This document shows, in pieces, positions 37,601 through 64,000 of a DNA stretch of 64,000 nucleotides. Every line of letters starts with the position of its first letter. Position 1 is the stretch's first letter. The position numbers and the translations under genes are program-made. Where the stretch lies: positions 915,381-979,380 of the forward strand of contig NC_009048.1 in assembly GCF_000209165.1 (NCBI RefSeq), written 5' to 3'. The notes beneath the pieces were generated by a model that worked only from the letters and a program-made list of their open reading frames with translations, was not told the origin of the DNA and did not search any database. The stretch comes from Scheffersomyces stipitis CBS 6054 (taxonomy: Eukaryota; Ascomycota; Pichiomycetes; Serinales; Debaryomycetaceae).

Positions 37601-40600
37601 TTACACCAGCGATGGAGTTGAAACTACAGGTACATTCGATGTTGTGGTGACTGTCGATCCAGAAGGAGTCTTGAGTACGTCGTCTTCGTTGCTCAACTTT
37701 GACACTGAATACACTACCACTGCTATTTACACCAGCGATGGAGTTGAGACTACAGGTACATTCGATGTTGTGGTGACTGTCGATCCAGAAGGAGTCTTGA
37801 GTACGTCGTCTTCGTTGCTCAACTTTGACACTGAATACACTACCACTGCTATTTACACCAGCGATGGAGTTGAAACTACAGGTACGTTTGACGTGATTGT
37901 CACAGTTGATCCAGAAGGAGTCTTGAGTACGTCGTCTTCGTTGCTCAACTTTGACACTGAATACACTACCACTGCTATTTACACCAGCGATGGAGTTGAA
38001 ACTACAGGTACATTCGATGTTGTGGTGACTGTCGATCCAGAAGGAGTCTTGAGTACGTCGTCTTCGTTGCTCAACTTTGACACTGAATACACTACCACTG
38101 CTATTTACACCAGCGATGGAGTTGAAACTACAGGTACGTTTGACGTGATTGTCACAGTTGATCCAGAAGGAGTCTTGAGTACGTCGTCTTCGTTGCTCAA
38201 CTTTGACACTGAATACACTACCACTGCTATTTACACCAGCGATGGAGTTGAAACTACAGGTACGTTTGACGTGATTGTCACAGTTGATCCAGAAGGAGTC
38301 TTGAGTACGTCGTCTTCGTTGCTCAACTTTGACACTGAATACACTACCACTGCTATTTACACCAGCGATGGAGTTGAAACTACAGGTACGTTTGACGTGA
38401 TTGTCACAGTTGATCCAGAAGGAGTCTTGAGTACGTCGTCTTCGTTGCTCAACTTTGACACTGAATACACTACCACTGCTATTTACACCAGCGATGGAGT
38501 TGAAACTACAGGTACGTTTGACGTGATTGTCACAGTTGATCCAGAAGGAGTCTTGAGTACGTCGTCTTCGTTGCTCAACTTTGACACTGAATACACTACC
38601 ACTGCTATTTACACCAGCGATGGAGTTGAAACTACAGGTACGTTTGACGTGATTGTCACAGTTGATCCAGAAGGAGTCTTGAGTACGTCGTCTTCGTTGC
38701 TCAACTTTGACACTGAATACACTACCACTGCTATTTACACCAGCGATGGAGTTGAAACTACAGGTACATTCGATGTTGTGGTGACTGTCGATCCAGAAGG
38801 AGTCTTGAGTACGTCGTCTTCGTTGCTCAACTTTGACACTGAATACACTACCACTGCTATTTACACCAGCGATGGAGTTGAAACTACAGGTACGTTTGAC
38901 GTGATTGTCACAGTTGATCCAGAAGGAGTCTTGAGTACGTCGTCTTCGTTGCTCAACTTTGACACTGAATACACTACCACTGCTATTTACACCAGCGATG
39001 GAGTTGAGACTACAGGTACATTCGATGTTGTGGTGACTGTCGATCCAGAAGGAGTCTTGAGTACGTCGTCTTCGTTGCTCAACTTTGACACTGAATACAC
39101 TACCACTGCTATTTACACCAGCGATGGAGTTGAAACTACTGGTACGTTTGACGTGATTGTCACAGTTGATCCAGAAGGAGTCTTGAGTACGTCGTCTTCG
39201 TTGCTCAACTTTGACACTGAATACACTACCACTGCTATTTACACCAGCGATGGAGTTGAGACTACAGGTACATTCGATGTTGTGGTGACTGTCGATCCAG
39301 AAGGAGTCTTGAGTACGTCGTCTTCGTTGCTCAACTTTGACACTGAATACACTACCACTGCTATTTACACCAGCGATGGAGTTGAAACTACTGGTACGTT
39401 TGACGTGATTGTCACAGTTGATCCAGAAGGAGTCTTGAGTACGTCGTCTTCGTTGCTCAACTTTGACACTGAATACACTACCACTGCTATTTACACCAGC
39501 GATGGAGTTGAGACTACAGGTACGTTTGACGTGATTGTCACAGTTGATCCAGAAGGAGTCTTGAGTACGTCGTCTTCGTTGCTCAACTTTGACACTGAAT
39601 ACACTACCACTGCTATTTACACCAGCGATGGAGTTGAGACTACAGGTACATTCGATGTTGTGGTGACTGTCGATCCAGAAGGAGTCTTGAGTACGTCGTC
39701 TTCGTTGCTCAACTTTGACACTGAATACACTACCACTGCTATTTACACCAGCGATGGAGTTGAAACTACAGGTACATTCGATGTTGTGGTGACTGTCGAT
39801 CCAGAAGGAGTCTTGAGTACGTCGTCTTCGTTGCTCAACTTTGACACTGAATACACTACCACTGCTATTTACACCAGCGATGGAGTTGAAACTACAGGTA
39901 CGTTTGACGTGATTGTCACAGTTGATCCAGAAGGAGTCTTGAGTACGTCGTCTTCGTTGCTCAACTTTGACACTGAATACACTACCACTGCTATTTACAC
40001 CAGCGATGGAGTTGAAACTACAGGTACATTCGATGTTGTGGTGACTGTCGATCCAGAAGGAGTCTTGAGTACGTCGTCTTCGTTGCTCAACTTTGACACT
40101 GAATACACTACCACTGCTATTTACACCAGCGATGGAGTTGAAACTACAGGTACATTCGATGTTGTGGTGACTGTCGATCCAGAAGGAGTCTTGAGTACGT
40201 CGTCTTCGTTGCTCAACTTTGACACTGAATACACTACCACTGCTATTTACACCAGCGATGGAGTTGAAACTACAGGTACATTCGATGTTGTGGTGACTGT
40301 CGATCCAGAAGGAGTCTTGAGTACGTCGTCTTCGTTGCTCAACTTTGACACTGAATACACTACCACTGCTATTTACACCAGCGATGGAGTTGAAACTACA
40401 GGTACGTTTGACGTGATTGTCACAGTTGATCCAGAAGGAGTCTTGAGTACGTCGTCTTCGTTGCTCAACTTTGACACTGAATACACTACCACTGCTATTT
40501 ACACCAGCGATGGAGTTGAGACTACAGGTACATTCGATGTTGTGGTGACTGTCGATCCAGAAGGAGTCTTGAGTACGTCGTCTTCGTTGCTCAACTTTGA

Positions 40601-43600
40601 CACTGAATACACTACCACTGCTATTTACACCAGCGATGGAGTTGAAACTACTGGTACGTTTGACGTGATTGTCACAGTTGATCCAGAAGGAGTCTTGAGT
40701 ACGTCGTCTTCGTTGCTCAACTTTGACACTGAATACACTACCACTGCTATTTACACCAGCGATGGAGTTGAGACTACAGGTACATTCGATGTTGTGGTGA
40801 CTGTCGATCCAGAAGGAGTCTTGAGTACGTCGTCTTCGTTGCTCAACTTTGACACTGAATACACTACCACTGCTATTTACACCAGCGATGGAGTTGAAAC
40901 TACAGGTACGTTTGACGTGATTGTCACAGTTGATCCAGAAGGAGTCTTGAGTACGTCGTCTTCGTTGCTCAACTTTGACACTGAATACACTACCACTGCT
41001 ATTTACACCAGCGATGGAGTTGAGACTACAGGTACGTTTGACGTGATTGTCACAGTTGATCCAGAAGGAGTCTTGAGTACGTCGTCTTCGTTGCTCAACT
41101 TTGACACTGAATACACTACCACTGCTATTTACACCAGCGATGGAGTTGAAACTACAGGTACGTTTGACGTGATTGTCACAGTTGATCCAGAAGGAGTCTT
41201 GAGTACGTCGTCTTCGTTGCTCAACTTTGACACTGAATACACTACCACTGCTATTTACACCAGCGATGGAGTTGAAACTACAGGTACATTCGATGTTGTG
41301 GTGACTGTCGATCCAGAAGGAGTCTTGAGTACGTCGTCTTCGTTGCTCAACTTTGACACTGAATACACTACCACTGCTATTTACACCAGCGATGGAGTTG
41401 AGACTACAGGTACGTTTGACGTGATTGTCACAGTTGATCCAGAAGGAGTCTTGAGTACGTCGTCTTCGTTGCTCAACTTTGACACTGAATACACTACCAT
41501 TGCTATTTACACCAGCGATGGAGTTGAAACTACAGGTACGTTTGACGTGATTGTCACAGTTGATCCAGAAGGAGTCTTGAGTACGTCGTCTTCGTTGCTC
41601 AACTTTGACACTGAATACACTACCACTGCTATTTACACCAGCGATGGAGTTGAAACTACAGGTACATTCGATGTTGTGGTGAGCGAAGATGCAGATGGTG
41701 CATTGACCACCTCGTCTTCGTTGATTGAACCTATTGATCCAGCGACTTCGTCCTCGGTGGTTGATCCTACAGATCCTGGTTCTCCTACAGAATATACAAC
41801 GACTGCGGTGTACACCAGTGACGGAGTAGTCACAACAGGTACATTCGATGTTGTGGTGAGCGGAGATGCAGATGGTGCATTGACCACCTCGTCTTCATTG
41901 ATTGATCCTACGGATCCTGGTTCTACTACAGAATATACAACGACTGCGGTGTACACTAGTGACGGAGTAGTCACAACAGGTACATTCGATGTTGTGGTGA
42001 GCGAAGATGCAGATGGTGCATTGACCACCTCGTCTTCGTTGATTGAACCTATTGATCCAACGACTTCGTCCTCGGTGGTTGATTCTACAGATCCTGGTTC
42101 TACTACAGAATATACAACGACTGCGGTGTACACTAGTGACGGAGTAGTCACAACAGGTACATTCGATGTTGTGGTGAGCGAAGATGCAGATGGTGCATTG
42201 ACCACCTCGTCTTCGTTGATTGATCCTACGGATCCTGGTTCTACTACAGAATATACAACGACTGCGGTGTACACCAGTGACGGAGTAGTCACAACAGGTA
42301 CATTCGATGTTGTGGTGAGCGAAGATGCAGATGGTGCATTGACCACCTCGTCTTCATTGATTGATCCTACGGATCCTGGTTCTACTACAGAATATACAAC
42401 GACTGCGGTGTACACTAGTGACGGAGTAGTCACAACAGGTACATTCGATGTTGTGGTGAGCGAAGATGCAGATGGTGCATTGACCACCTCGTCTTCGTTG
42501 ATTGATCCTACGGATCCTGGTTCTCCTACAGAATATACAACGACTGCGGTGTACACCAGTGACGGAGTAGTCACAACAGGTACATTCGATGTTGTGGTGA
42601 GCGAAGATGCAGATGGTGCATTGACCACCTCGTCTTCATTGATTGATCCTACGGATCCTGGTTCTACTACAGAATATACAACGACTGCGGTGTACACTAG
42701 TGACGGAGTAGTCACAACAGGTACATTCGATGTTGTGGTGAGCGAAGATGCAGATGGTGCATTGACCACCTCGTCTTCGTTGATTGAACCTATTGATCCA
42801 ACGACTTCGTCCTCGGTGGTTGATCCTACAGATCTTGGTTCTACTACAGAATATACAACGACTGCGGTGTACACTAGTGACGGAGTAGTCACAACAGGTA
42901 CATTCGATGTTGTGGTGAGCGAAGATGCAGATGGTGCATTGACCACCTCGTCTTCGTTGATTGAACCTATTGATCCAACGACTTCGTCCTCGGTGGTTGA
43001 TCCTACGGATCCTGGTTCTCCTACAGAATATACAACGACTGCGGTATACACCAGTGACGGAGTAGTCACAACAGGTACATTCGATGTTGTGGTGAGCGAA
43101 GATGCAGATGGTGCATTGACTACCTCGTCTTCGTTGATTGAACCTATTGATCCAACGACGTCGTTCTCGGTGGTTGACACTATTATCCCAACTAGCTCAT
43201 CTTCGATAATTGGTCCTTTTTATCCAATGAACTCTTCATCGGTGGTTGTTTCTATTGATCCAACTAGTACATTTTCATTGATTGACACTATTGATCCAAC
43301 TACTTCATCGTTATTGACTGATTCTATTGATCCTATTGATCCAACGAGTTCATTTTCGTTGATTGACCCCATAGATCCAACGAGTGCATCTTCATTGATT
43401 GATTCTTTAGATCCAACGAGTTCATCTTCATTGATTGATTCTTTAGATCCAACGAGCTCATCTTCATTGATTGACCCTAGCAGTGCAACTACTTCACCCT
43501 CGTTAGTTGATCCTATAACGAGTTCATTGATTGACCCTATAGATCCAACGAGTTCATCTTCATTGATTGATTCTTTAGATCCAACGAGTTCATCTTCATT

Positions 43601-44807: not shown

Positions 44808-47800
44808 CTAAACAATTAATGTCACAGCCAAACATAAGAGAGTTGCAAGAGAGAAAGTGGATCTCATAAAGTTAGCAGAACCCTCGTAGACCGGGACAGA
44901 GGGGCTGGTGTAATTGGAGATAACATCTGGAGCTGAGGATTCTGGGGATTCTGGAGCTGGGGATTCTGGAGCTGGGGATTCTGGAGCTGGGGATTCTGGT
45001 GACTCTGGTGAAACAGGTTCTGCTGTTGTAGTAGAAGGTGAAACTGAGATGGTGATAGTGGTGAGGATAGTCGAAACAATATCATTAGGGCCAGTCACTG
45101 TGTAGGCAGTGGTGTAGACTTCAGCTGGAGGAGAATCAGTTGCTACTGAGGCAAATGTCACAATCGAGGAAGTAGAGTCATCTGGACCCTTGGCGAGAAA
45201 CGTAGTAGGCTCTGATGCTGGAACAGTGTAAGTAGTGAATTCGCCGTTTGGTCCAGTGATTGCAACAGTTGAGTTATAATCTGGTGCTGTAGCAGTAGAT
45301 GGAGCAGGAATTGGAGCGGTAGTTACATATGTACTAATCGAACCATTTGGACCAGTAATGGTAACAGTAGTAGTACGACCGGCTTCTGTTGAAGTGTAAC
45401 CAGGAGCAGTAGTGGTAATATAGGTTGTAATTTCTCCCTGTGGACCAGTTGTAACTATTGTAGTGGTTACACATGGTTCACTAATGATTTCAGTAACAGT
45501 CGAACCAGTAGTAGTAGTTATGTAGGTAGTTACTTCGCCTTGCGGGCCAGTAGTTACAACTGTGGTCGTAATGCATGGCACAGTAACAAAGTCTGTTGTG
45601 GTGTCGGTTGTGGTGTAGGTTGTTAAATCTCCATTTGAATCAGTTTTTGTGATAATAGAAGTAACGTAAGAGGGTTCTGTGCTAGACGTATTTTCTGAAG
45701 TTGGGTAGCTAGTTGGAACTTCGACGATGACGGTATCAGTACCACCAACAGTATCGGTAATAGTTTCAGTGGTGGTGAAAGTGCCGGTCCAGGTAGAAGT
45801 AACGGTGGTTTGAGGGTTTGATCCGTACAGTGTAGGAACTTCGACGATGACGGTATCAGTACCACCAATAGTATCGGTAATAGTTTCAGTAGTTGTGAAA
45901 GTACCGGTCCAGGTAGAAGTAACGGTGGTTTGAGGGTTTGATCCGTACAGTGTAGGAACTTCGACGATGACGGTATCAGTACCACCAATAGTATCGGTAA
46001 TAGTTTCAGTAGTTGTGAAAGTACCGGTCCAGGTAGAGGTGATAGTAGTAGTTGGGTTTGCTCCGTACAGTGTAGGAACTTCGACGATGACGGTATCAGT
46101 ACCACCAACAGTATCGGTAATAGTTTCAGTAGTTGTGAAAGTGCCGGTCCAGGTAGAGGTGATAGTAGTAGTTGGGTTTGCTCCGTACAGTGTAGGAACT
46201 TCGACGATGACGGTATCAGTACCACCAACAGTATCGGTAATAGTTTCAGTGGTGGTGAAAGTGCCGGTCCAGGTAGAAGTAACGGTGGTTTGAGGGTTTG
46301 CTCCGTACAGTGTAGGAACTTCGACGATGACGGTATCAGTACCACCAATAGTATCGGTAATAGTTTCAGTAGTTGTGAAAGTACCGGTCCAGGTAGAGGT
46401 GATAGTAGTAGTTGGGTTTGCTCCGTACAGTGTAGGAACTTCGACGATGACGGTATCAGTACCACCAACAGTATCGGTAATAGTTTCAGTAGTTGTGAAA
46501 GTACCGGTCCAGGTAGAGGTGATAGTAGTAGTTGGGTTTGCTCCGTACAGTGTAGGAACTTCGACGATGACGGTATCAGTACCACCAATAGTATCGGTAA
46601 TAGTTTCAGTAGTTGTGAAAGTACCGGTCCAGGTAGAAGTAACGGTGGTTTGAGGGTTTGATCCGTACAGTGTAGGAACTTCGACGATGACGGTATCAGT
46701 ACCACCAATAGTATCGGTAATAGTTTCAGTAGTTGTGAAAGTACCGGTCCAGGTAGAGGTGATAGTAGTAGTTGGGTTTGCTCCGTACAGTGTAGGAACT
46801 TCGACGATGACGGTATCAGTACCACCAACAGTATCGGTAATAGTTTCAGTAGTTGTGAAAGTGCCGGTCCAGGTAGAGGTGATAGTAGTAGTTGGATTGC
46901 TGGCACACGTTTCAGAGATAGTGGTGGTGGTAGTGAACCAAGAACCTTGGCTATCAGTGGCAATGACAATACCGTCGACTTCAGTACATATTGATCCGTC
47001 AGAGTTGGTGGATACAATTGTAGTGGTAGAAGTAGTTGCACTTGTTCCTGGTGAGTCGGGAAGTGTCTTACAAGGTTGACATGCAGCTGGGATACCAGGG
47101 TTTGGAACTGGTCCCGAATAAGTTACTGCTCCAAAAGGAACAGAAAGTAATCCAAGATCATCGTCAGTAGTTATAGAGAAGAGACCGTTGTCGTAACCAG
47201 TACCGATAAGGAAATTTTGCGATAACAAACCAGCACCACGAAGGGTCAATATGCCAGCTGAAGCATCATAATCCCAGGCATCAAGTAAAGGAGGAAGATT
47301 GACAAGTGGAATATCTAAACCAATTGTGTTACCGTTTCCGAATCCAGCGACGGTGAAAGTCTTTGGAACACTGATGGCAGTAGCTCTAAGTGAAGATGCC
47401 AGATCAGCAAGATAGATTGTTTGGTTTGGATCGATATTCAAGAGGGTATTGGAAAAGAAGATGCTGGAGTCTGTATTGGCAGTGATACAACCTGTACCGA
47501 CAATATTGTTAGTCTGAGTATAAAGTTCATTGTACAAACAGATTTGACCATTGTTGTTTATTGTTCCCAATGGAGCACCAAGAAGAACTGGACCAGTAGA
47601 TCTTGTGTTCTGGTAGAAAACCAATAAACCATTGTTGTCCCAGGTGGCAGATGTAATCAGCTGGACTGGAACAAGAACAGAACCATCACCTCCTAAGTAC
47701 ATTTCACCATTGTTGGTGAAGGAGAGACCGACAAGATTGTAAACAGGCGCAGTTAATGATTGTAACGCATTGAACGAAATAATACCATTATTTTCAAGAC

Positions 47801-48068
47801 TACCCAATGGAGAAAGAAGAGTGACTGTGGATGCAATCAAACTAGAAGTACTAGTAATGTAAAAACCAGAACCCTGACCGACTTTAAGGGAACCGGCCAT
47901 TGCACTAATGGCATTGTCGATAATAGACCAATAGACACCATCTTCAATTGTAATATCACCAATATCCAAGTTAAGAAAACCTCTGTTGATTGTATTTTGG
48001 CTGATGGTGACAGCCATCGCCATAGAGAATAGAGAAACACATGCAGTCAAGTACTTGCTGAACAACAT
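44808..48068 (-). CDS. Hyr/Iff-family GPI adhesin with flocculin-like repeats
   Basis: The 1086-residue protein has a signal peptide (about 1-19) and a Hyr/Iff N-terminal domain (about 20-340) clearly paralogous to that of the giant neighbour (ISQNTINRGFL, YWSIID, INNNGQICLYNELY, GTGCITANTDS). Then come ten 40-residue units (391-790) of TSTWTGTFTTTETITDT type, close to the WTGTFT flocculin repeat. A Thr-rich stalk with several YTVTGPNG-like VTGPQGEVTTYITT units follows, then a PESPA repeat and a hydrophobic GPI signal. The head is thus Hyr/Iff while the stalk repeats are flocculin-like, which suggests domain shuffling. Expected at the cell surface in adhesion or flocculation; ligand unknown. 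Confidence 0.92.
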   Translation of the reverse strand: MLFSKYLTACVSLFSMAMAVTISQNTINRGFLNLDIGDITIEDGVYWSIIDNAISAMAGSLKVGQGSGFYITSTSSLIASTVTLLSPLGSLENNGIISFNALQSLTAPVYNLVGLSFTNNGEMYLGGDGSVLVPVQLITSATWDNNGLLVFYQNTRSTGPVLLGAPLGTINNNGQICLYNELYTQTNNIVGTGCITANTDSSIFFSNTLLNIDPNQTIYLADLASSLRATAISVPKTFTVAGFGNGNTIGLDIPLVNLPPLLDAWDYDASAGILTLRGAGLLSQNFLIGTGYDNGLFSITTDDDLGLLSVPFGAVTYSGPVPNPGIPAACQPCKTLPDSPGTSATTSTTTIVSTNSDGSICTEVDGIVIATDSQGSWFTTTTTISETCASNPTTTITSTWTGTFTTTETITDTVGGTDTVIVEVPTLYGANPTTTITSTWTGTFTTTETITDTIGGTDTVIVEVPTLYGSNPQTTVTSTWTGTFTTTETITDTIGGTDTVIVEVPTLYGANPTTTITSTWTGTFTTTETITDTVGGTDTVIVEVPTLYGANPTTTITSTWTGTFTTTETITDTIGGTDTVIVEVPTLYGANPQTTVTSTWTGTFTTTETITDTVGGTDTVIVEVPTLYGANPTTTITSTWTGTFTTTETITDTVGGTDTVIVEVPTLYGANPTTTITSTWTGTFTTTETITDTIGGTDTVIVEVPTLYGSNPQTTVTSTWTGTFTTTETITDTIGGTDTVIVEVPTLYGSNPQTTVTSTWTGTFTTTETITDTVGGTDTVIVEVPTSYPTSENTSSTEPSYVTSIITKTDSNGDLTTYTTTDTTTDFVTVPCITTTVVTTGPQGEVTTYITTTTGSTVTEIISEPCVTTTIVTTGPQGEITTYITTTAPGYTSTEAGRTTTVTITGPNGSISTYVTTAPIPAPSTATAPDYNSTVAITGPNGEFTTYTVPASEPTTFLAKGPDDSTSSIVTFASVATDSPPAEVYTTAYTVTGPNDIVSTILTTITISVSPSTTTAEPVSPESPESPAPESPAPESPAPESPESSAPDVISNYTSPSVPVYEGSANFMRSTFSLATLLCLAVTLIV
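44935..45003 (-). repeat. 15-bp PESPA repeats
   Basis: ggagctggggattct (+ strand) is repeated about four times, encoding Pro-Glu-Ser-Pro-Ala on the minus strand just before the GPI region of the adhesin. Confidence 0.85.
45699..46898 (-). repeat. Ten 120-bp flocculin-like coding repeats
   Basis: Ten head-to-tail units of exactly 120 bp with no length change. They vary between NPTTTITSTW and NPQTTVTSTW starts and between TDTVGG and TDTIGG, in a mixed order as in the neighbour's array. Confidence 0.95.
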
Positions 48069-51964: not shown

Positions 51965-53704
51965 ATGATGTTGCAATCATCCATAGCTCAAAACGAAAAT
52001 GATTTGGTACCTGGAACAGTCCATCTTGTTGACATTCGGGGAAATTTAAAAGTTAAGAAGGATGCTGAAGGAAAAAATATCATCCTTCAACCTCAACCAT
52101 CTTCAAACGTTAATGACCCTTTGAGATGGCCCCAGTCCAAGAAAATAAAACAGTTTTCCTTGTTATGGATCTGGTAAGTTCTGTCGTTCTGTCTAAGTAA
52201 ATGTTACTGTGCTAACCAATTTAGGGCGTTTCTATTAGCTGTTTCTGTAAATTTTTCAGGGCCACTATGGGTACCTTGGTCTGAGAGTTTTAATTGCTCT
52301 TTTTTTCAACTAAATGTGTCATCAGCGCTATGCTTTTTGTTCCTTGGTATTGGCTGCTTATTTTTGCAACCTACTGCACTCAAGTTAGGTAGGCGTTTCG
52401 TTTACTTAGTATGTACAGTGATAATCTTAATTTCTAACATAATTGGCTCACAAGCAACAAATGTGAAATATTTATATGTGGTCAATATCTTGGGAGGATT
52501 TGCTGCTGCACCGGTTGATTCTTTGGTAGAAATTTCCTCGACAGATGTGTTTTTCCAACACGAGAGATCAACAGTATTCAGTTTGTTAATATTAGCTTTA
52601 TATGCCGGAAGTGATTTGGGCCCTGTTGCTTGTGGTTATATTGTGGAGAAGCTAAGTTGGAGATGGTGCTATTACATTCAAATTATAATTTACGGTGTCT
52701 TACTAATTATTCAGATATTCTATATGGAAGACACCACATTTAGACGCGAATACAATGCCGAGAGTCTTGAAGCTGAGATCTTAGCTCAAATCAAATCGAA
52801 TAAGACTCCAGAAGAAAAGTACTCTGGAAGAAAAGAAAAAGATTCGAAAGTCGAAGTTAGAGTGAGCTCAATAGAAGCCATTGATGATATTTCTTCGAAC
52901 GACACATCTTCCATTAATTCCTCCATTCCTAAAAGAACTTATTGGCAAAGAATTAAATTCATCGAGTTGGAATACAATGATACCAGATCTTGGTTAACTA
53001 TATTCTATAGGCCATTCTTGTTAATTTCATTTCCTGCAATCATATGGGGAGGAGTACTTTACGGAGCTCAGATGATGTGGTTGTCTCTATTAGCAACAAC
53101 TCAATCTGAGATATATTCTGCAAGTCCATACTTCTTTTCGGTTCCTCAAGTAGGATTAACTAACTTGGGGGCTTGTGTTGGTAGTTTACTTGGAATGGTA
53201 TATGGTGGCACCTTCGTTGATTACCTTGCTCTAAGGCTAGCAAAGAGGAATAATGGAATTTTAGAGCCTGAATTCAGATTGTGGGCAATGTTTGTTCCCA
53301 CATTTTTCAATGCAGGTGGCTTATTAGCATATGGATTAGGCTCTTACTTGGAAGCGCATTGGGCTGTATCTGTCGTAGTAGGTCAGGGGTTGTTAGGATT
53401 CGCAATGAGTTCATCAGGTGCCATTTGTTTAACTTATGCAGTGGATTCTTACCCCAAAGTTGCTAGTGAGGGACTTGTTCTCATGTTATTTTGTCGTAAT
53501 TGTATTGGAATGGCGTTCACATTTGCTATTCAACCTTGGTTAGACAGAAACGGTTTGAGTATCACCACTTGGCTAATGTTCATGCTTTCCCTTATTATTA
53601 ATGGCAGCTTTCTTTTAATGATAAAATGGGGTAAAGAATTCAGAAGGTGGACTGCTGCAAGATACGACAAGTACTCTGATCCCAGGTATGGTCAAATATT
53701 CTAA
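51965..53704 (+). CDS. DHA1-family MFS transporter, Hol1-like, two exons
   Basis: The gene is join(51965..52173, 52225..53704), 562 residues. An ATG at 51968 is an alternative start. Exon 1 encodes the soluble N-terminus with NDPLRWPQSKK, the usual sequence before the first membrane helix in fungal DHA1 carriers. Splicing restores a Trp codon and the frame of exon 2, which supplies the rest of helix 1 (AFLLAVSVNFSGPLW). Later marks are LKLGRRFVYL, AAAPVDSLVEISSTDVFFQHERSTVFSL, GSDLGPVACGYIVEKLSWRWCYYIQ, and about twelve hydrophobic segments with a charged central loop (about 250-315). Hol1-type carriers move cations or polyamines; the substrate here is unknown. A subtelomeric transporter next to adhesins is typical of yeast adaptive genes. 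Confidence 0.85.
52174..52224 (+). other. 51-bp spliceosomal intron in the MFS gene
   Basis: Begins GTAAGT, has a branch-point-like TGCTAAC at about 52209-52215, and ends TTTAG. Removing it joins two open frames of one transporter in phase; without removal the frame stops at once after the exon. Confidence 0.85.
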
Positions 53705-55034: not shown

Positions 55035-55316
55035 ATGGCCTCCGAAAGTATTCCTTTTTCTTCTGTAGCTTATTGAAGTAAGTCTCCCGTGGATGCAACT
55101 ACTAAGAATTTTGGTGAAGTTTACTAAGCTCCAGTTAGGTGAAATCTTTGAACAGAAATCTACAAGACGTTTTGATCACTGAAGTTTGCTTTGTAATGGA
55201 TCTGACGGGCCAAGTTTTCATGGATGTTTGTGGAAGTGACGTAAGGTATGCGCTAAATAATGGGTGCGAAACGACATTTATGTTGTGGATGTCGCGGAAT
55301 GTCGTATTTTTTGAGT

Positions 55317-55717: not shown

Positions 55718-58700
55718 TCATGCATGTCTTCTCTTGTTGACACAAGCATGACACCGCTCCTTACCAGCCTCATAACAAGTTTGTTCAGTTAAACGCATAT
55801 GTCTCATTATCATTAAATTAACACAAGTGTCCAATAAGTCTCGTTGAAACTCAGTCGAATAAAAGTTGAGCAATACCATTTCTACCTTCCCACTGCTCAA
55901 TTGACTGCCAACAAGCAATTCTATCGGGTTGTTAATCGAATATGCAAACAAGACGGTTGTATGTTTGAACATATGAAGACCAACCATCGCCTCTGCCGTA
56001 GTAACCACAACCCTGATATTCTCACTGGCTATCTTATTTAAAGCAGCTGCTCTGGCATCTGGGGATCCATAGATACCTATACTTGGAACCTCAACGGCCA
56101 TTCTATTTAACAAGTACGACACTTTATCAGAAGACTCGGCAATCACAATTGCCGAACCCAAACTCCTAACTTTGTCTATAACCGTCTGACATATTGACGT
56201 GGTACTAGGCTTCTTGAAAAGAGTGAACTCTTTATGAGGCAAGAGTGGTTCCTGTGACGACACCCTCACCAAGGATTCGAGATTAAATAATGTACTCAAC
56301 GTATCGTCTTCCTTCTGTGAAAGGAATGACGTCAAAAATACTATTGGTACATTTTTGTTTCCTTCTATCACGTATTGTTTCATTTGCAAAATATGTGCAT
56401 CATCAACCACCACCCGGCGGAGATAGGTCTTGCCTCGATAATTAGTAGACTGAATATGTCTGACTACCGAATCAAGATGTCTAAGGTGGCCGTCTTCAAG
56501 CAGCATCAAAAGAACATCATAATTGTTGACCTGTCCAACAGAACCATCATACGTATGCACCTTGAAATTTTCTGTTAATTGGCGGATGGTGGAGTTGAGT
56601 GTAGAAATATAAGGTACCACAAATATCGTAACACAGTGAGTCTTTTTACCTCGATTGGTCCGGCGAAGACTGTTAGTACGCTCTGCCAACATCGCAATAA
56701 TGCAACAAGTCGTCTTTCCCAGATTAATAGCCACCATCATACTGAAGCAATTAGCTACATCCGATGTGGCCTGTTGTTGGCCCTCCTTGAACCTAAACTG
56801 TTGTCCAAATATCTTTCTGCCTGCCTCCAAGAGTTCCTCTCCTGTCAATTTCGGTGGTTCGTTCCTAGTAAATATGCTAGGCGTAAATATCTGAAGAGTC
56901 CTCATCTCCAAACAGGTATGCCAGGCTGCCAGACAGTCTCTCATTCTTTGAAGCATGACATGATTGTAGCCATCTCTATTTGTGGCATAACTTTCGACAA
57001 ACCTACTAAACGAATGCCCAGCCTGTTCGGCAAGGGTGTTGTCAATCTTGATCTGTAACCCAATCATCCCAGAGACGTTCGCCCCAACAAAATATGAAAG
57101 CACTTGTCTTATTTCACCGTACATGATTCCTCTAAGCTTTGGAGTTGTTTTATTTATGAACTTACGGAACGATTTTCCAAGAGTAGTACTGCTTTTGATT
57201 CCCTTCTCTCCCATGAACAAATGGAGCTTGTATTTATCACTTAGTTTCTTAAACTCTGTGAGGCTCAATGAACCGGTTTGTTCTTGGTATTCAACAAGAG
57301 TGTATTCGAATGGCCGGACAAAATAGATATAGTGAGCCAAGCATTCTGACACCTCTTCGGGCAACATCTTGAGAATAGGACGTTCTCGACTATATTTCAT
57401 ACTGTTCTTTCCATTGTTGGTAAAGAGGCCAAGCATCCCATCAGCAACAAATACATTACTTCCCAATCTTTCTTCGTTACGAATAAGAACCAGGTATAAT
57501 TCCGTTAAACGATACGGAGACCCACACGTCAACAAGATCATACAAAAAAAATAGTTGTTCAATCTAGAGAGTCGGCGACGGAAACACTGAAGACTTTTGA
57601 CATCATACTTATCAACCAGATTAATTTCCAAGCATCTGTCGATGTCCCTTTGATCCCAGTTGTAACTAGTTTGAGGCATTCCAACAACTCTTGGTTTTTG
57701 TGCTGCCAGCATCTCATGCATGGCCATAGTTGGCGTGATGTTGATGTCCACGAAAAGTTCCTCGACTTCAAGTACATATTGCTGAATGGCATCATAGACC
57801 CATTTTTTGATGTCGTTGAGTCCAACTTCAAATGTATTTATTCTTATTATGTCTCCAACACGTAGCACGTTCATGGTCCTTCCAAATGTTCGAGGACTCA
57901 ACGAGTGTACATCGGCACTGAACTTGCGAAATCGGCCGAAATTGAGTGATATGGAAGCAGACTTGTTACAATCCTCAACAAAAGGATGGACATAAGACTT
58001 GTCTTTTTTCATCACGTCCACAGCTATACATTTGAATGCAAAGGATAGGCCACTGCAGAAATCGCAGCGGTACGACTTAATTTTGAATCCTATTCCTCCT
58101 TCATCAAGAAGACACACCATTAGACTGCTCATAAAGATATCGTCCATGTAGTTTAGGTCGTCTTCCTGCAACACTAGCACCGGAGACAACAACCAGAACG
58201 CGCCAAATATCTTCATTTGACCGAAAAATCTTCGTAATCCCTGTTCTTTGTTGGCACAGAATACTTGATCAAACGCTTCCATTGCTTTGTGTTCCTTCAA
58301 CTCGCACATTTTCATGGCAACATAGAGGAATCTGGCTAGCGCGAGTCCATATCGCAGGGCAGAGTTTGGAGTGCTACAGAACCTGGGGTTATCGATGAGC
58401 GCTGAGAGAGAAGATCCGGTACTCAAAGCTAATCTTTTCTTCGTTACATATTTCTTGCACAATTGTACCAAACGTGGCCATCTTTTGTCATTAGCCATGT
58501 TCAAAAATGAGCGGAACTTTGTATACTCATGCGCTTTGTATCTGGATAAAAATGGATCTACAATTTGCAATTCCGCAGAGCTATCTGTTGGTTCGTGAAA
58601 CCCAGCGGCTAGGTTCAGTTGAATTCGGAAGTAGTTTGTCTTGGCCTCTACATTCCGAACACTGTAACCATACACAACATGCTTTTCAGGTCCCTCTTCT

Positions 58701-61700
58701 CGTTGGTGCTTGGCTTGTTTGATATGAGCGGTAACGCTGGAGTGGTGGGCAATGAACTTACACACATGACACATGTAGTATTTAGTTGGCTGTATGCAGT
58801 TATCTACCAACTCGAAATCGAGATGCTCTCCGTTGCCATTTTCCACCGCCACCACTGGACCGTCATATTTTACTGCTGCTTGCAAAGTGGCAACTTGCTG
58901 CTGGTGACGGGGTGCCAACATGTATTCATACTTTCTATCCATATTGTGGAGCATGTAGGATATTAACTCACTCCTCACGCTCAGCACTAAGTCGGCAAAG
59001 AAGACCTTCCTCAGCAACCTGTGTGTTATACTTCGGAACCACTTCTGCGTGAAATCATAGTATAAGCCAAGCTCCTTCACTAGCAAGTAGTTGTGCTTGG
59101 CCAAGAATTGGTCGGGGAGCATACCTAGCTTGACCTCTAACCATTTCACTTTGCTTTCATATTCTTCCGCCGTCCACCCAGGCCCACCCATAACCCATTG
59201 TGAACTCAGACCTGTAATTTCTTCAACAGTAGCTGCAGCTTCGGCTTCAGCAACATCATCTGGAATACCTATTGCATAGTAGAGGCCCTTTGGTCGCTCC
59301 AAAAGGTATCCTTTGAAATCCGCACTTGTGTCATGACCAGCATGTTCTCTTCCGACCATGCTCGCATAATCACGCCTGTGCCTGGAAAACGCAGTTTTTG
59401 TTTTAAATATCTGATAGCATTGTTTACAAAAGCATAGTTTCTTCGAGTAAGCTACTTTGGACAATTCTTTGGCCCAGTGGATGTGTCCTCTGGTTACTTT
59501 CTTCTCGAATTTGCTGGAGTCAATGATTTGAGTGCTAATGACACGGTCCACCAAGTTTCGAATACGGCTTTTGTGGTCACCAATATCTTCCAATGTGTTT
59601 TTGAAAAACTTTGAATTCACGTCAACATACCGCTCTTCTGTTATGTAGTAGTACAAGTAGAAGATAGGATCGTAAACTAACCCATGGGAGTATCTCAATA
59701 GTTCAGAGACCTCGATTTCTTCTTCCTTGGATGGAGGTGGAAGAGATTCAGGTTCTTGTTCGTAGTCGCTGGCCTCTTCGTCTGTGGAATACGGCTCCAC
59801 TATGAATTCAGGGTGTGTGACTGGTGAACCCAGTCCATCGTCGAATGAAGGAATAACAATATCTTCGTCATCATAATCGCCATCCTCCGATTCGCACGTA
59901 CTGATTGATTCGCTTGACCCCAATATTACCAAGAGATTGAATCCCGTTGCGGCCCTGATTGCATACCCTTCTCGACTGATGAATCTATCATGACCAGTAT
60001 TCTTTGCATGACGGGCAGAGCTTCTTAAGTTTTCATTGTTCTCGTTGAATCCTATTACAAAGCCACATTCCGAACAGTACGTATGTATGTTTGGAGGAAG
60101 CCTGGGAAAGGGACGGAGAATTTCAAATGTTCTACCCTTGGTATCTATTGGAATTCTATAGTACTGAGGCATAAGATCGACCCATTCCTCAACATCTTCC
60201 AACATCTGGGTATATTGTGCATTTGACACTGTTCCCATGAGAAAGGACCTGAAAGCCCTGGAGGTGATGTCAAGGAAGTGTTGTTGTCCTCTCAGCCAAA
60301 GAAGATTGTTAATTTGACAAATACCCTTCTTTTTTAACTGAGACCATCCACTAACAGTGGAAATCCTAACAGTTTCTTCGTCATATAATAAATCTGCTTC
60401 TGGTTCATATTCATTATCAAGACCATCATCGGAGGTATCATAAGCTGAAATGTCTGATTCGTCATTATCCGATTCAGTATCATTATCTATTGCAATGTCA
60501 ATCATTTCTTCATCATCTTCTTGTGCATCATCTACAAAGAGATTATCCGAATCAGAAGAATCGTCAAATGATCTAAAGTCACCTTCTTGAACTTCATCTT
60601 CTAAGAGAGTATCCGACTCAGATTCTCCATTTACTGCTGTCAATTCGTCACCTTCTTGACCATCTACTGTGAGATTTTCCATATCAGAAGCATAGTCTAC
60701 TGACCCCTCAGCTTCTTGTTCATCGCTCAGGAAGACAGCACCAGAATCAGAGGCATAATATTCGAGATCGGGAGCCTCCTCTCGTTGATCTTCCAAAATG
60801 TCTGTCATTCCTCCACCCAGTGCTAATAAGAAAATAGTCCCCAGCTCCATTCTGTATCCCATCCCAGTTAGAACATTAAGGTTATCGACATCACAATGGT
60901 CATCGATGATAGCCGAATTGATACAATTAGGGCAGTACTGGATCTTTGAAGGTGATAAGCCATGTAGGGGTTCTTTCAACCATTCAAGACATATTTGTAC
61001 CTCGGACAGCGTATTAGGGCTGGCTAACAAAAACCAGTAGTAGGAATTCAGCATTACTGCATGCATGTGTGTTTCAAGAAACTTGCATTTGTCAATGATA
61101 GAAGACAACGAGTTGTGAACAATTTCGGAGTTTCTATCCAAAAACACACGTTCATGTTCGTGCCAGTACAACCCCATATCAGGAATGTATATGATATTGG
61201 CGTATTTTTGCAAAAAGGCATCAGCGGTCATATTCTCAGATTCTCTCACACAGATTTTGGTGATAAGAGGGCCCTTGTATTCTACTTCTAAGTCTCTATT
61301 GGTGAAGCGAGATCGACGATGGATGGGAGAAGAGCAAGGTATGGTTGGACTCAGGGCAGTCACATTTGGAGTGCTTGGTGGAGGAGTAGCAGGTAAAGAA
61401 GGCATACGTGGGAATTCCTTCAATAGAAAGAAACCCCCCAGTTCCACTCTATAGCCTTCTCCCCTTCTCATGTATCCATGACTTGCACATTTCACTGGGA
61501 GGTGACCAATGTTTCTGGTGTACTTACAGGAATCACAGAAGGCAAATTCTTCGGCTTCAATGCCAGGGATAGGGCTTGGAATGGTAGCCACATTCACAAT
61601 ATTTGACTCGCGTTCTATTTGGTTGTAATAAGGTGATTGTTTTGTTAGTTTGCTAATGAGGTCAAGAAATCTTTGCTTTGACTTTATATATAATTTGGAG

Positions 61701-62050
61701 CTGGCATATTTCGAATCCGAAGAGATAAAATAATGCCTTTTTTCCAGATAGAAGTATCCTAGAGACTCAACAAACACAAAGTAATTTTTGGCCAAGTAGT
61801 CAAGTTCGTCTTTGACATTTGTCCTCGCTGGAGTAGATTGCATTGAAGAACATGGCAGGCTCCGTCTAAACGATTGAGGGCTCGACCAAATATGCTCATC
61901 GGTAGAAACGAGATTGGAGTTTTCGCATTTGATATCTACTTGGCTGAAGTCGTCTAGAGCATCTTCGAAGTTCTGGTCCAGGTCCAGGTCCAGACCCAGA
62001 TCCAAAGTTATTGGATTATGACTTGAATAGCCTGGTGCTTGAGTATTCAT
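55718..62050 (-). CDS. Telomere-linked helicase-like protein with zinc-finger modules and recombinase-like region
   Basis: The 2110-residue protein is unbroken. Residues 80-1140 contain five repeats of one module: a helical part with a YxxxxRxFL/I-type signature, then a zinc finger (first Cys pairs C172/C175, C373/C376, C659/C662, C875/C878, C1094/C1097) and a GYxxELGxxFLL-type strand. An acidic, probably disordered stretch lies at about 420-570. Residues 1450-1700 look like a tyrosine recombinase: R1514 in TCGSPYRLTEL, R1648 in YGEIRQ, H1679 in AGHS, Y1688. Residues 1760-2090 are an SF2 helicase with degraded motifs: Walker A NLGKTT (K1779, first Gly lost), DDAH at 1883, and no RecQ-type GRAGR. 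The last residues add a CxxxxxxxxCxxC cluster. Fungal telomere-linked RecQ-like helicases sit in this position; activity of this copy is doubtful. Confidence 0.8.
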   Translation of the reverse strand: MNTQAPGYSSHNPITLDLGLDLDLDQNFEDALDDFSQVDIKCENSNLVSTDEHIWSSPQSFRRSLPCSSMQSTPARTNVKDELDYLAKNYFVFVESLGYFYLEKRHYFISSDSKYASSKLYIKSKQRFLDLISKLTKQSPYYNQIERESNIVNVATIPSPIPGIEAEEFAFCDSCKYTRNIGHLPVKCASHGYMRRGEGYRVELGGFFLLKEFPRMPSLPATPPPSTPNVTALSPTIPCSSPIHRRSRFTNRDLEVEYKGPLITKICVRESENMTADAFLQKYANIIYIPDMGLYWHEHERVFLDRNSEIVHNSLSSIIDKCKFLETHMHAVMLNSYYWFLLASPNTLSEVQICLEWLKEPLHGLSPSKIQYCPNCINSAIIDDHCDVDNLNVLTGMGYRMELGTIFLLALGGGMTDILEDQREEAPDLEYYASDSGAVFLSDEQEAEGSVDYASDMENLTVDGQEGDELTAVNGESESDTLLEDEVQEGDFRSFDDSSDSDNLFVDDAQEDDEEMIDIAIDNDTESDNDESDISAYDTSDDGLDNEYEPEADLLYDEETVRISTVSGWSQLKKKGICQINNLLWLRGQQHFLDITSRAFRSFLMGTVSNAQYTQMLEDVEEWVDLMPQYYRIPIDTKGRTFEILRPFPRLPPNIHTYCSECGFVIGFNENNENLRSSARHAKNTGHDRFISREGYAIRAATGFNLLVILGSSESISTCESEDGDYDDEDIVIPSFDDGLGSPVTHPEFIVEPYSTDEEASDYEQEPESLPPPSKEEEIEVSELLRYSHGLVYDPIFYLYYYITEERYVDVNSKFFKNTLEDIGDHKSRIRNLVDRVISTQIIDSSKFEKKVTRGHIHWAKELSKVAYSKKLCFCKQCYQIFKTKTAFSRHRRDYASMVGREHAGHDTSADFKGYLLERPKGLYYAIGIPDDVAEAEAAATVEEITGLSSQWVMGGPGWTAEEYESKVKWLEVKLGMLPDQFLAKHNYLLVKELGLYYDFTQKWFRSITHRLLRKVFFADLVLSVRSELISYMLHNMDRKYEYMLAPRHQQQVATLQAAVKYDGPVVAVENGNGEHLDFELVDNCIQPTKYYMCHVCKFIAHHSSVTAHIKQAKHQREEGPEKHVVYGYSVRNVEAKTNYFRIQLNLAAGFHEPTDSSAELQIVDPFLSRYKAHEYTKFRSFLNMANDKRWPRLVQLCKKYVTKKRLALSTGSSLSALIDNPRFCSTPNSALRYGLALARFLYVAMKMCELKEHKAMEAFDQVFCANKEQGLRRFFGQMKIFGAFWLLSPVLVLQEDDLNYMDDIFMSSLMVCLLDEGGIGFKIKSYRCDFCSGLSFAFKCIAVDVMKKDKSYVHPFVEDCNKSASISLNFGRFRKFSADVHSLSPRTFGRTMNVLRVGDIIRINTFEVGLNDIKKWVYDAIQQYVLEVEELFVDINITPTMAMHEMLAAQKPRVVGMPQTSYNWDQRDIDRCLEINLVDKYDVKSLQCFRRRLSRLNNYFFCMILLTCGSPYRLTELYLVLIRNEERLGSNVFVADGMLGLFTNNGKNSMKYSRERPILKMLPEEVSECLAHYIYFVRPFEYTLVEYQEQTGSLSLTEFKKLSDKYKLHLFMGEKGIKSSTTLGKSFRKFINKTTPKLRGIMYGEIRQVLSYFVGANVSGMIGLQIKIDNTLAEQAGHSFSRFVESYATNRDGYNHVMLQRMRDCLAAWHTCLEMRTLQIFTPSIFTRNEPPKLTGEELLEAGRKIFGQQFRFKEGQQQATSDVANCFSMMVAINLGKTTCCIIAMLAERTNSLRRTNRGKKTHCVTIFVVPYISTLNSTIRQLTENFKVHTYDGSVGQVNNYDVLLMLLEDGHLRHLDSVVRHIQSTNYRGKTYLRRVVVDDAHILQMKQYVIEGNKNVPIVFLTSFLSQKEDDTLSTLFNLESLVRVSSQEPLLPHKEFTLFKKPSTTSICQTVIDKVRSLGSAIVIAESSDKVSYLLNRMAVEVPSIGIYGSPDARAAALNKIASENIRVVVTTAEAMVGLHMFKHTTVLFAYSINNPIELLVGSQLSSGKVEMVLLNFYSTEFQRDLLDTCVNLMIMRHMRLTEQTCYEAGKERCHACVNKRRHA

Positions 62051-63661: not shown

Positions 63662-63704
63662 GTTGCGGCACGGATGTATAATAGCGGCACGGGTCTTTTC
63701 ACGT
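63662..63704 (+). repeat. Degenerate proximal telomere repeats
   Basis: Two imperfect copies precede the pure array: gttgcggcacggatgtataata and gcggcacgggtcttttcacgt. The first shares ACGGATGT with the C. albicans telomere unit. Inner copies that have drifted are normal at yeast telomeres. Confidence 0.7.
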
Positions 63705-64000
63705 CTTGCGGTATGGATCTTTTCACGTCTTGCGGTATGGATCTTTTCACGTCTTGCGGTATGGATCTTTTCACGTCTTGCGGTATGGATCTTTTCACGT
63801 CTTGCGGTATGGATCTTTTCACGTCTTGCGGTATGGATCTTTTCACGTCTTGCGGTATGGATCTTTTCACGTCTTGCGGTATGGATCTTTTCACGTCTTG
63901 CGGTATGGATCTTTTCACGTCTTGCGGTATGGATCTTTTCACGTCTTGCGGTATGGATCTTTTCACGTCTTGCGGTATGGATCTTTTCACGTCTTGCGGT
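63705..64000 (+). repeat. Telomere: twelve full 24-bp repeats plus 8 bp
   Basis: The unit runs cttgcggtatgg then atcttttcacgt and is perfectly conserved over 12 copies; the sequence ends 8 bases into a thirteenth. The strand with the GCGGTATGGATC core runs 5'-3' toward the edge, as the G-rich telomere strand should. Alignment to the 23-bp Candida albicans unit (TTGGTGTACGGATGTCTAA...) keeps TTG, GTA, GGAT and TCT-like blocks. The open frame this creates on the minus strand (KRSIPQDV repeated) is not a gene. Confidence 0.9.

What the first reader, a model, noticed from the sequence alone, without database searches (positions are those of the whole stretch)
56900..57700. Tyrosine-recombinase-like catalytic set inside the telomere-linked helicase gene
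Residues 1514 to 1688 contain TCGSPYRLTEL (Arg I, like the TGxRxxEL box), K1548/K1552 as candidate box-B lysines, R1648 in YGEIRQ (the usual His three residues before is Gly), and AGHS...Y with H1679 exactly nine residues before Y1688, as in LGHSxxxTTxxYxH recombinases. The protein would join DNA-binding zinc modules, a DNA-joining enzyme and a helicase. That raises the possibility that this gene is, or derives from, a mobile element that lives at telomeres rather than a plain RecQ helicase. I do not know whether this relation is already published for the family.
Basis: partly seen in the sequence, partly recalled or inferred. Interest (0 to 1): 0.75.

Follow-up and report, generated by a model that had tools for sequence, protein, structure and literature searches.

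The report
Recombinase-like domain in telomere helicase gene
A yeast gene repeated at many chromosome ends carries, next to its helicase part, a well-preserved stretch that resembles the DNA cutting-and-rejoining enzymes of mobile elements, and the repeated unit around it ends at a precise sequence, which hints at a mobile element living at telomeres but does not prove it.

Summary
In the 2110-aa gene at 55718-62050 (-), beside the chromosome-8 right telomere of Scheffersomyces stipitis, R1514, K1548/K1552, R1648, H1679 and Y1688 sit as described and are kept in 6 of 6 aligned copies. The segment has the lowest dN/dS of the gene in 6 of 6 copy pairs (0.15-0.24; helicase 0.24-0.46). The one distant relative found (P0006, 26% identical) keeps R1514, K1548, H1679 and Y1688, not R1648. 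With P0006, profile comparison with bacterial tyrosine recombinases beats 300 of 300 column shuffles, but at 10% probability; the yeast copies alone score no better than decoys, no family library recognises them, and both AlphaFold models failed. So: probable, unproven, recombinase-like domain. New fact: the gene lies in a telomere-facing unit whose far end is precise, GCCCGTC followed at most junctions by AGATCCAT, even where the preceding DNA is unrelated; at three places it abuts internal telomere arrays of 24n+16 bp. This suits an element with defined ends targeting the telomere repeat; Y'-like recombinational spread is not excluded. That the enzyme is active and moves the unit is inference.

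The parts
55718..62050 (-). telomere-linked helicase gene, 2110 aa with CTG=Ser (P0001)
   Evidence: open frame; database names of near-identical relatives: ATP-dependent DNA helicase, Scheffersomyces stipitis CBS 6054
56891..57703 (-). tyrosine-recombinase-like segment, residues 1450-1720
   Evidence: motif, lowest dN/dS, similarity to P0006, profile alignment
57509..57511 (-). R1514, candidate Arg I in TCGSPYRLTEL
57407..57409 (-). K1548, candidate beta-hairpin Lys; kept in P0006
57107..57109 (-). R1648, candidate Arg II in YGEIRQ; not kept in P0006
57014..57016 (-). H1679, candidate His III in AGHS
56987..56989 (-). Y1688, candidate nucleophile, nine residues after H1679
55721..56833 (-). 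helicase part, residues 1740-2110
   Evidence: sub-threshold Pfam DEAD E 0.0047 and Helicase_C E 0.019; AINSGKTT at 1774, DDAH after 1880, SSGKVEM at 2052
58673..61537 (-). N-terminal CxxC modules, CxxC at residues 172, 373, 659, 875 and 1094; three of them fit C..C-H-H (659, 875, 1094)
   Evidence: Phage_zn_bind_3 E 0.0082 at 871-894, below cut-off
55204..55210 (-). 3' terminus of the unit, GCCCGTC
   Evidence: shared by unit types with unrelated trailers
55196..55203 (-). AGATCCAT, eight bases of the telomere repeat, then unique DNA
63680..63697 (-). 5' terminus of the unit, AAGACCCGTGCCGCTATT, overlapping the telomere repeat
63694..64000 (+). terminal telomere repeats, 24 bp, 12.8 copies

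Best explanation
Residues about 1450-1720 form a divergent tyrosine-recombinase-type domain (inferred from motif, constraint and profiles; not shown by structure) inside a telomere-linked helicase. The gene is carried by a unit of about 8.5 kb that sits against the telomere repeats and has a fixed 3' terminus, GCCCGTC, followed at six of eight junctions seen by AGATCC, AGATCCAT or AGACCCGT (shown). Most likely working model: the zinc-type modules hold the protein on telomeric DNA, the recombinase-like domain recognises the telomere-phase core AGATCCAT and the unit end and exchanges strands there, so that a unit is added to or lost from a telomere at a fixed phase; homologous recombination and telomerase then spread and re-cap units (all inferred). 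My odds: recombinase-like fold 0.7; unit with a defined 3' end 0.85; recombinase active and responsible for the ends 0.3-0.35. The confidence below is for the domain plus defined-end unit together.
For: Motif at the stated places and 2 of 20,000 shuffles; residues kept in 6 of 6 copies and dN/dS lowest there in 6 of 6 pairs of four distinct copies; P0006 at 26% identity keeps four of five core residues; hhalign of the four-sequence alignment against 33 bacterial recombinases 26.9, above 300 of 300 column shuffles (maximum 22.2); P0006 alone 26.3, above 400 of 400 shuffles (maximum 24.9). GCCCGTCAGATCCAT occurs exactly five times in the genome, each time at a unit end, control 0; the window-type and C2-type trailers are unrelated yet both end in GCCCGTC; internal telomere arrays at C1, C2 and C7 are 160, 208 and 232 bp, all 24n+16 and in the same phase.
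Against: Without P0006 the yeast copies score 14.8 against decoy windows up to 18.3; hmmsearch gives -0.5 bits for the window segment and 5.1 for P0006, with 2 of P0006's 2,000 shuffles higher; hhalign places R1648 two columns off and prefers Y1695 to Y1688; box-II His is Gly; P0006 lacks Arg II; no family model hit; AlphaFold failed; Foldseek on the poor model showed no recombinase among 31 matches. Two of eight junctions do not continue with telomere sequence. No empty site was found.
Confidence: 0.6

Rival explanations
1. Y'-like subtelomeric repeat: units spread only by homologous recombination or break-induced replication through telomere repeats and shared flanks. The recombinase-like domain, if real, is a relic or a DNA-binding part and the unit is not an autonomous mobile element.
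For: Tandem units with telomere repeats between them; phase-locked arrays can be inherited; copies are mosaics, for instance L003; a common telomere-side segment is at 14 of 16 ends, also where no gene follows; helicase-bearing telomere repeats of this sort are known in yeast (recalled, and passage in PMC4522978).
Against: It does not explain why unrelated trailers share GCCCGTC at the junction, nor the stronger selection on the recombinase-like part than on the helicase.
Confidence: 0.45
2. Chance or convergent motif: the segment is an ordinary helical domain of a telomere-linked helicase and has no kinship with tyrosine recombinases.
For: No library hit, paralogs alone not above decoys, probability of the profile match only 10%, box-II His absent, no usable model, and my recombinase profile was filtered to contain the motif.
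Against: Exact H-x8-Y and box I also in P0006; collinear alignment above all shuffles; strongest constraint in the gene.
Confidence: 0.27
3. Retrotransposition in trans: a host LINE enzyme copies the unit's RNA onto the 3' overhang of a telomere, so that the gene's 3' side joins the old telomere.
For: Orientation fits: the gene's 3' side faces the older array at a fixed repeat phase; LINE elements exist in the species (PMC8546629 passages).
Against: No poly(A) at the eight junctions printed; 5' ends are uniform; four deleted copies share one internal deletion rather than varied 5' truncation; no reverse transcriptase among the open frames listed in the unit.
Confidence: 0.08

Closest known systems
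Fungal telomere-linked helicases (TLH; Ustilago UTASa, Magnaporthe TLH, S. pombe tlh, Fusarium tlh)
   Same: Multicopy helicase genes next to telomeres: here 24 protein matches, all within 20 kb of an end, on 11 of 16 ends
   Different: Sequence kinship with those genes was not testable, none was retrieved; a recombinase-like segment appears in none of the passages I saw on them
Tyrosine recombinases (XerC/D, phage integrases)
   Same: Order R, K, R, H-x8-Y and box I
   Different: Far below family thresholds; Gly for box-II His; 31 residues from R1648 to H1679, longer than the 22-23 that I recall for XerD, Cre and lambda Int
Crypton transposons
   Same: Recombinase-type protein in an element without terminal inverted or long terminal repeats; short direct repeat at the ends, here GCCCGT at both unit ends (Crypton description: passage in PMC7175516)
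   Different: No GCR1_C match; helicase fused; telomere location
Saccharomyces Y' elements
   Same: Helicase-bearing subtelomeric units in tandem, with telomere repeats between some of them
   Different: Y' is not known to carry a recombinase-type domain (recalled); sequence kinship not tested

Membership tests
Tyrosine recombinase | Catalytic set R, K, H/K-x-x-R, H/W, Y in order | tested here: inconclusive
   R, K, R, H, Y in order and in 6 of 6 copies, but Gly for the box-II His; P0006 lacks Arg II
Tyrosine recombinase | Match to a family profile | tested here: not met
   none in Pfam, NCBIfam, PHROGs; PF00589 absent from the genome at E up to 10, controls 14 of 14
Tyrosine recombinase | Catalytic-domain fold | tested here: inconclusive
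   models of mean pLDDT 31.7 and 33.5
Tyrosine recombinase | Covalent strand exchange through the Tyr | not testable with these tools
   needs biochemistry
Telomere-linked helicase | Helicase gene next to telomeres, multicopy | tested here: met
   helicase models below their cut-offs
Telomere-linked helicase | Sequence kinship with described TLH genes | not tested
   no described TLH sequence was retrieved
Crypton | Recombinase ORF with GCR1_C-type DNA-binding domain (recalled) | tested here: not met
   no GCR1_C among the three families at E up to 1
Crypton | Short direct repeat flanking the element | tested here: inconclusive
   GCCCGT at both unit ends and telomere repeats outside; no empty site to show a target repeat
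Starship captain (DUF3435) | DUF3435 domain | tested here: not met
   not among Pfam matches; genome search negative but its controls rang nowhere
Y' element | Helicase-bearing subtelomeric units in tandem with telomere repeats between them | tested here: met
   repeat arrays between or after units at C1, C2 and C7 left; none between the three C4 left units; kinship with Y' not tested

The most novel reading that the evidence does not exclude
The telomere-linked helicase units are tyrosine-recombinase transposons specialised for telomeres: the recombinase domain of the helicase protein inserts and removes units at one phase of the 24-bp telomere repeat (core AGATCCAT), and fungal telomere-linked helicases more widely descend from such elements.
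Probability: 0.25. Interest if true: 0.88.

Novelty: new variant of a known kind. Interest (0 to 1): 0.6.

Why it matters
Telomere-linked helicases are multicopy at chromosome ends of many fungi, and their function and origin are open. A recombinase-type domain under stronger selection than the helicase itself would turn 'helicase repeat' into 'element with its own DNA-joining enzyme' and give direct tests (catalytic-Tyr mutant, junction sequencing) of how such repeats spread. PMC8546629 (passages seen) lists ATP-dependent DNA helicases as a gene family in 7 of 16 subtelomeres of this species and reports no DNA transposons in it.

Tried and rejected
Three protein searches returned only S. stipitis proteins and P0006; the third, with P0006 aligned, reached no further. 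Viral-contig scans with P0006 and with a degenerate peptide pattern gave no relative: nothing, two loci that read as frame noise. A PDB sequence search with the paralog profile gave ten DEAD-box RNA helicase sequences at E 0.49 or worse. AlphaFold with 5 and with 3 sequences failed, and Foldseek on the second model is meaningless. hhalign against a XerD-only profile aligned 17 C-terminal columns; a wider recombinase profile was then used. For that profile 5 of 30 fetched integrases were dropped because my filter found no H..R..H..Y stretch, and every tenth of 80 XerD relatives (8) was added: the profile is thus selected for the motif. In one search, 750 of 2,000 shuffles of the window segment and 513 of 2,000 of P0006 gave no score and are not ranked. 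No empty chromosome-8 site was found: the 993-bp flank matches only itself, and a 15-base pattern across the junction has one exact hit, itself, with many two-mismatch hits near control level. Phage_integrase was absent from the genome by profile; DUF3435 too, but its controls rang nowhere. I considered that the fixed array length 24n+16 proves site-specific insertion and rejected that: inheritance of both boundaries gives the same.

Full report
Identity of the window. The gene's near relatives are named Scheffersomyces stipitis CBS 6054. The window is the last 64 kb of contig C8 of an 8-contig, 15.4-Mb genome and ends in 12.8 copies of a 24-bp repeat. PMC8546629 (passages seen) describes 24-nt telomere units in this species. 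CTG codons fall in an acidic Ser-Asp run near the N terminus, so I used the CTG=Ser code.

The observation. A motif expression written after seeing the sequence occurs in 2 of 20,000 shuffles of the protein, in 29 of 80 XerD-like controls, and in P0001, P0002, P0003 and P0006, not in the partial proteins P0004 and P0005. The count is post hoc and should be read as 'unlikely by chance', not as a formal P value.

Conservation. I aligned six copies: the window copy, L003, L004, the C2 copy, the second C4 copy (identical in coding sequence to C2) and the third C4 copy (1572 aa). The six motif residues are kept in 6 of 6. Nei-Gojobori dN/dS was tabulated for the six pairs among the window copy, L004, C2 and the third C4 copy. 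For residues 1450-1720 it is 0.239, 0.151, 0.156, 0.202, 0.205 and 0.152; for the helicase part 0.421, 0.240, 0.455, 0.418, 0.254 and 0.443; for the whole gene 0.236-0.414. The recombinase-like segment has the lowest of the five regional values in each pair. Gene conversion between copies (L003 is a visible mosaic) and shared branches make these pairs non-independent.

Distant relative. A profile of six paralogs found one further protein, P0006, 485 aa from a 27-kb JGI contig, E 0.03 in 5.8 billion sequences and E 3e-10 pairwise with 26% identity. It has GGQPARGTELL at box I, Lys at the place of K1548, and H-x8-Y in AAHTSRMAGSCYA. R1648 is not matched; by my own reading of WRYNAIAIS its place holds Asn. 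A box like GQPARGTE fused to helicases in basidiomycetes is recalled by me and was not retrieved by any search.

Profile tests. No Pfam, NCBIfam or PHROGs recombinase family was reached. I built a profile from 25 of 30 fetched bacterial integrases and 8 of 80 XerD relatives, filtered to contain the motif. hmmsearch gave -0.5, -1.3 and -0.3 bits for the three S. stipitis segments, well inside their shuffle range (top 9.0), and 5.1 for P0006, exceeded by 2 of its 2,000 shuffles. hhalign with the four-sequence alignment gave 26.9 (probability 10%), aligning box I, the following strands and the LPEEV helix, and the H-S box collinearly; it misplaced R1648 by two columns and chose Y1695, which P0006 lacks, rather than Y1688. 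None of 300 column shuffles reached that score, maximum 22.2. Without P0006 the paralogs score 14.8, against windows elsewhere in the same protein up to 18.3. P0006 alone scores 26.3 and none of 400 shuffles reached it, maximum 24.9. The signal therefore comes through P0006. Two AlphaFold jobs gave mean pLDDT 31.7 and 33.5, too poor to use.

The helicase. Pfam sees DEAD and Helicase_C below their cut-offs. Walker A (AINSGKTT) is intact; motif II reads DDAH; where motif VI is expected the sequence is SSGKVEM, without the usual arginines (motif consensus recalled). With its higher dN/dS this suggests that the helicase is the less constrained part.

The unit. The genome holds 24 matches to the protein, all with their nearer edge within 20 kb of a chromosome end and on 11 of 16 ends. 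Seven copies are open over about 2,100 residues: C7L, C8R, C4L first, C1L first, C7R, C2L and C4L second, the last two listed as two rows each. 23 of the 24 matches run away from their telomere; the exception is the helicase-only relative L018. C7L and the window share 8,355 bp at 100% identity. The 5' end is a telomere-side segment whose first bases AAG(A/G)CCCGTGCCGCTATT are found, with up to two mismatches, at 18 sites: 14 of 16 chromosome ends (not C6) and 4 internal sites, control 0. The 3' end is GCCCGTC. GCCCGTCAGATCCAT occurs exactly at 5 sites, all unit ends, and with one mismatch at 2 internal sites that I did not study; control 0. At C1, C2 and C7 left it opens internal telomere arrays of 160, 208 and 232 bp, each 24n+16 and starting AGATCCATACCGCAAG. 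At C8 (this window) and at C4 near 16.5 kb AGATCCAT is followed by non-telomeric DNA, and at C7 right GCCCGTC is followed by AG and the next unit's 5' end. Two other junctions differ: GCCCGTC|TGGTCACG at C4 near 8.5 kb and GCCCGTC|GCCTGTC at C1 near 16.9 kb. GCCCGTC alone is short and also occurs inside the genes. The C2-type trailer (294 bp) shows no similarity to the window's (514 bp; 169 of 200 shuffles scored at least as high) and hardly any to C1's (13 of 200), while the window and C1 trailers are related (0 of 200); yet each finishes in GCCCGTC. That is the strongest sign of a functional terminus. The C2-type end is a 24-bp piece with a short palindrome; its first 18 bases occur 5 times in the genome, control 0, two of them in tandem at C4.

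Deleted derivatives. Four ends (C7L second copy, C4R, C8L, C6R) carry the same 5' segment fused near unit position 1393 to coding sequence from about 6,640, with a shared small internal deletion; C6R has lost more. One deleted ancestor was therefore copied to four ends. Their 3' trailers, as far as printed, do not show the GCCCGTC-AGATCCAT end.

Reading. What it works like: probably a recombinase-type domain in a telomere-linked helicase within an element-like unit. Whether it is a member: motif and fold are inconclusive, the family-profile test is not met, and activity is untested; I do not file it as a tyrosine recombinase. Y'-like spread by homologous recombination explains the distribution, mosaics and phase-locked arrays equally well; it does not explain the shared terminus of unrelated trailers. 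I keep both readings.

Literature. Ten searches of the held library were made. 'Telomere-linked helicase' with 'tyrosine recombinase' returned no paper; 'tyrosine recombinase', 'RecQ', 'fungal' and 'telomer' together returned one, on a Lyme spirochete. No listing I saw joins a recombinase with telomere-linked helicases, but several lists were cut: 20 of 38, 12 of 362, 40 of 4,569. Passages only were seen of PMC12857005 ('recombinase' 0 occurrences in its main text), PMC4522978, PMC8546629, PMC7175516, PMC10532341 and PMC4466345. Two TLH papers that I asked for are not held and other founding TLH papers were not asked for, so 'unpublished' is not established.

Noticed in passing
55196-55210; L026-L030: Precise 3' end GCCCGTC-AGATCCAT of the telomere-facing unit, shared by unit types with unrelated trailers.
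   Followed up: yes
L134-L138 (C1:16907, C2:8607, C4:8478, C4:16487, C4:16511): 24-bp tail GCCCTAAAGGGCTACCCGCCCGTC with a short palindrome, same length as the telomere repeat; doubled at one C4 junction and joined straight to a gene end on C1.
   Followed up: partly
L013, L015, L016, L019: Internally deleted units from one deleted ancestor at four chromosome ends, like non-autonomous copies.
   Followed up: partly
L018:1429-2622 (C4:1786237-1787349): Open 398-aa frame related to the helicase part only (31% identity), about 16 kb from the right end of C4, in the opposite orientation to the other 23 matches and with no recombinase-like part upstream.
   Followed up: partly
55721-56833: The helicase part reads DDAH in motif II and lacks the usual motif VI arginines, so it may be a weak or altered ATPase.
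   Followed up: partly
33021-43177: Very long tandem repeats (126-bp unit, 68.7 copies, then 141/177-bp units), probably a subtelomeric cell-surface gene.
   Followed up: no
44808-48068: 1086-aa frame on the - strand with 120-bp repeats, looks like a hyphally regulated cell-wall type protein (recalled resemblance).
   Followed up: no
52316-53704: 462-aa frame that looks like a membrane transporter of the MFS kind (recalled resemblance).
   Followed up: no
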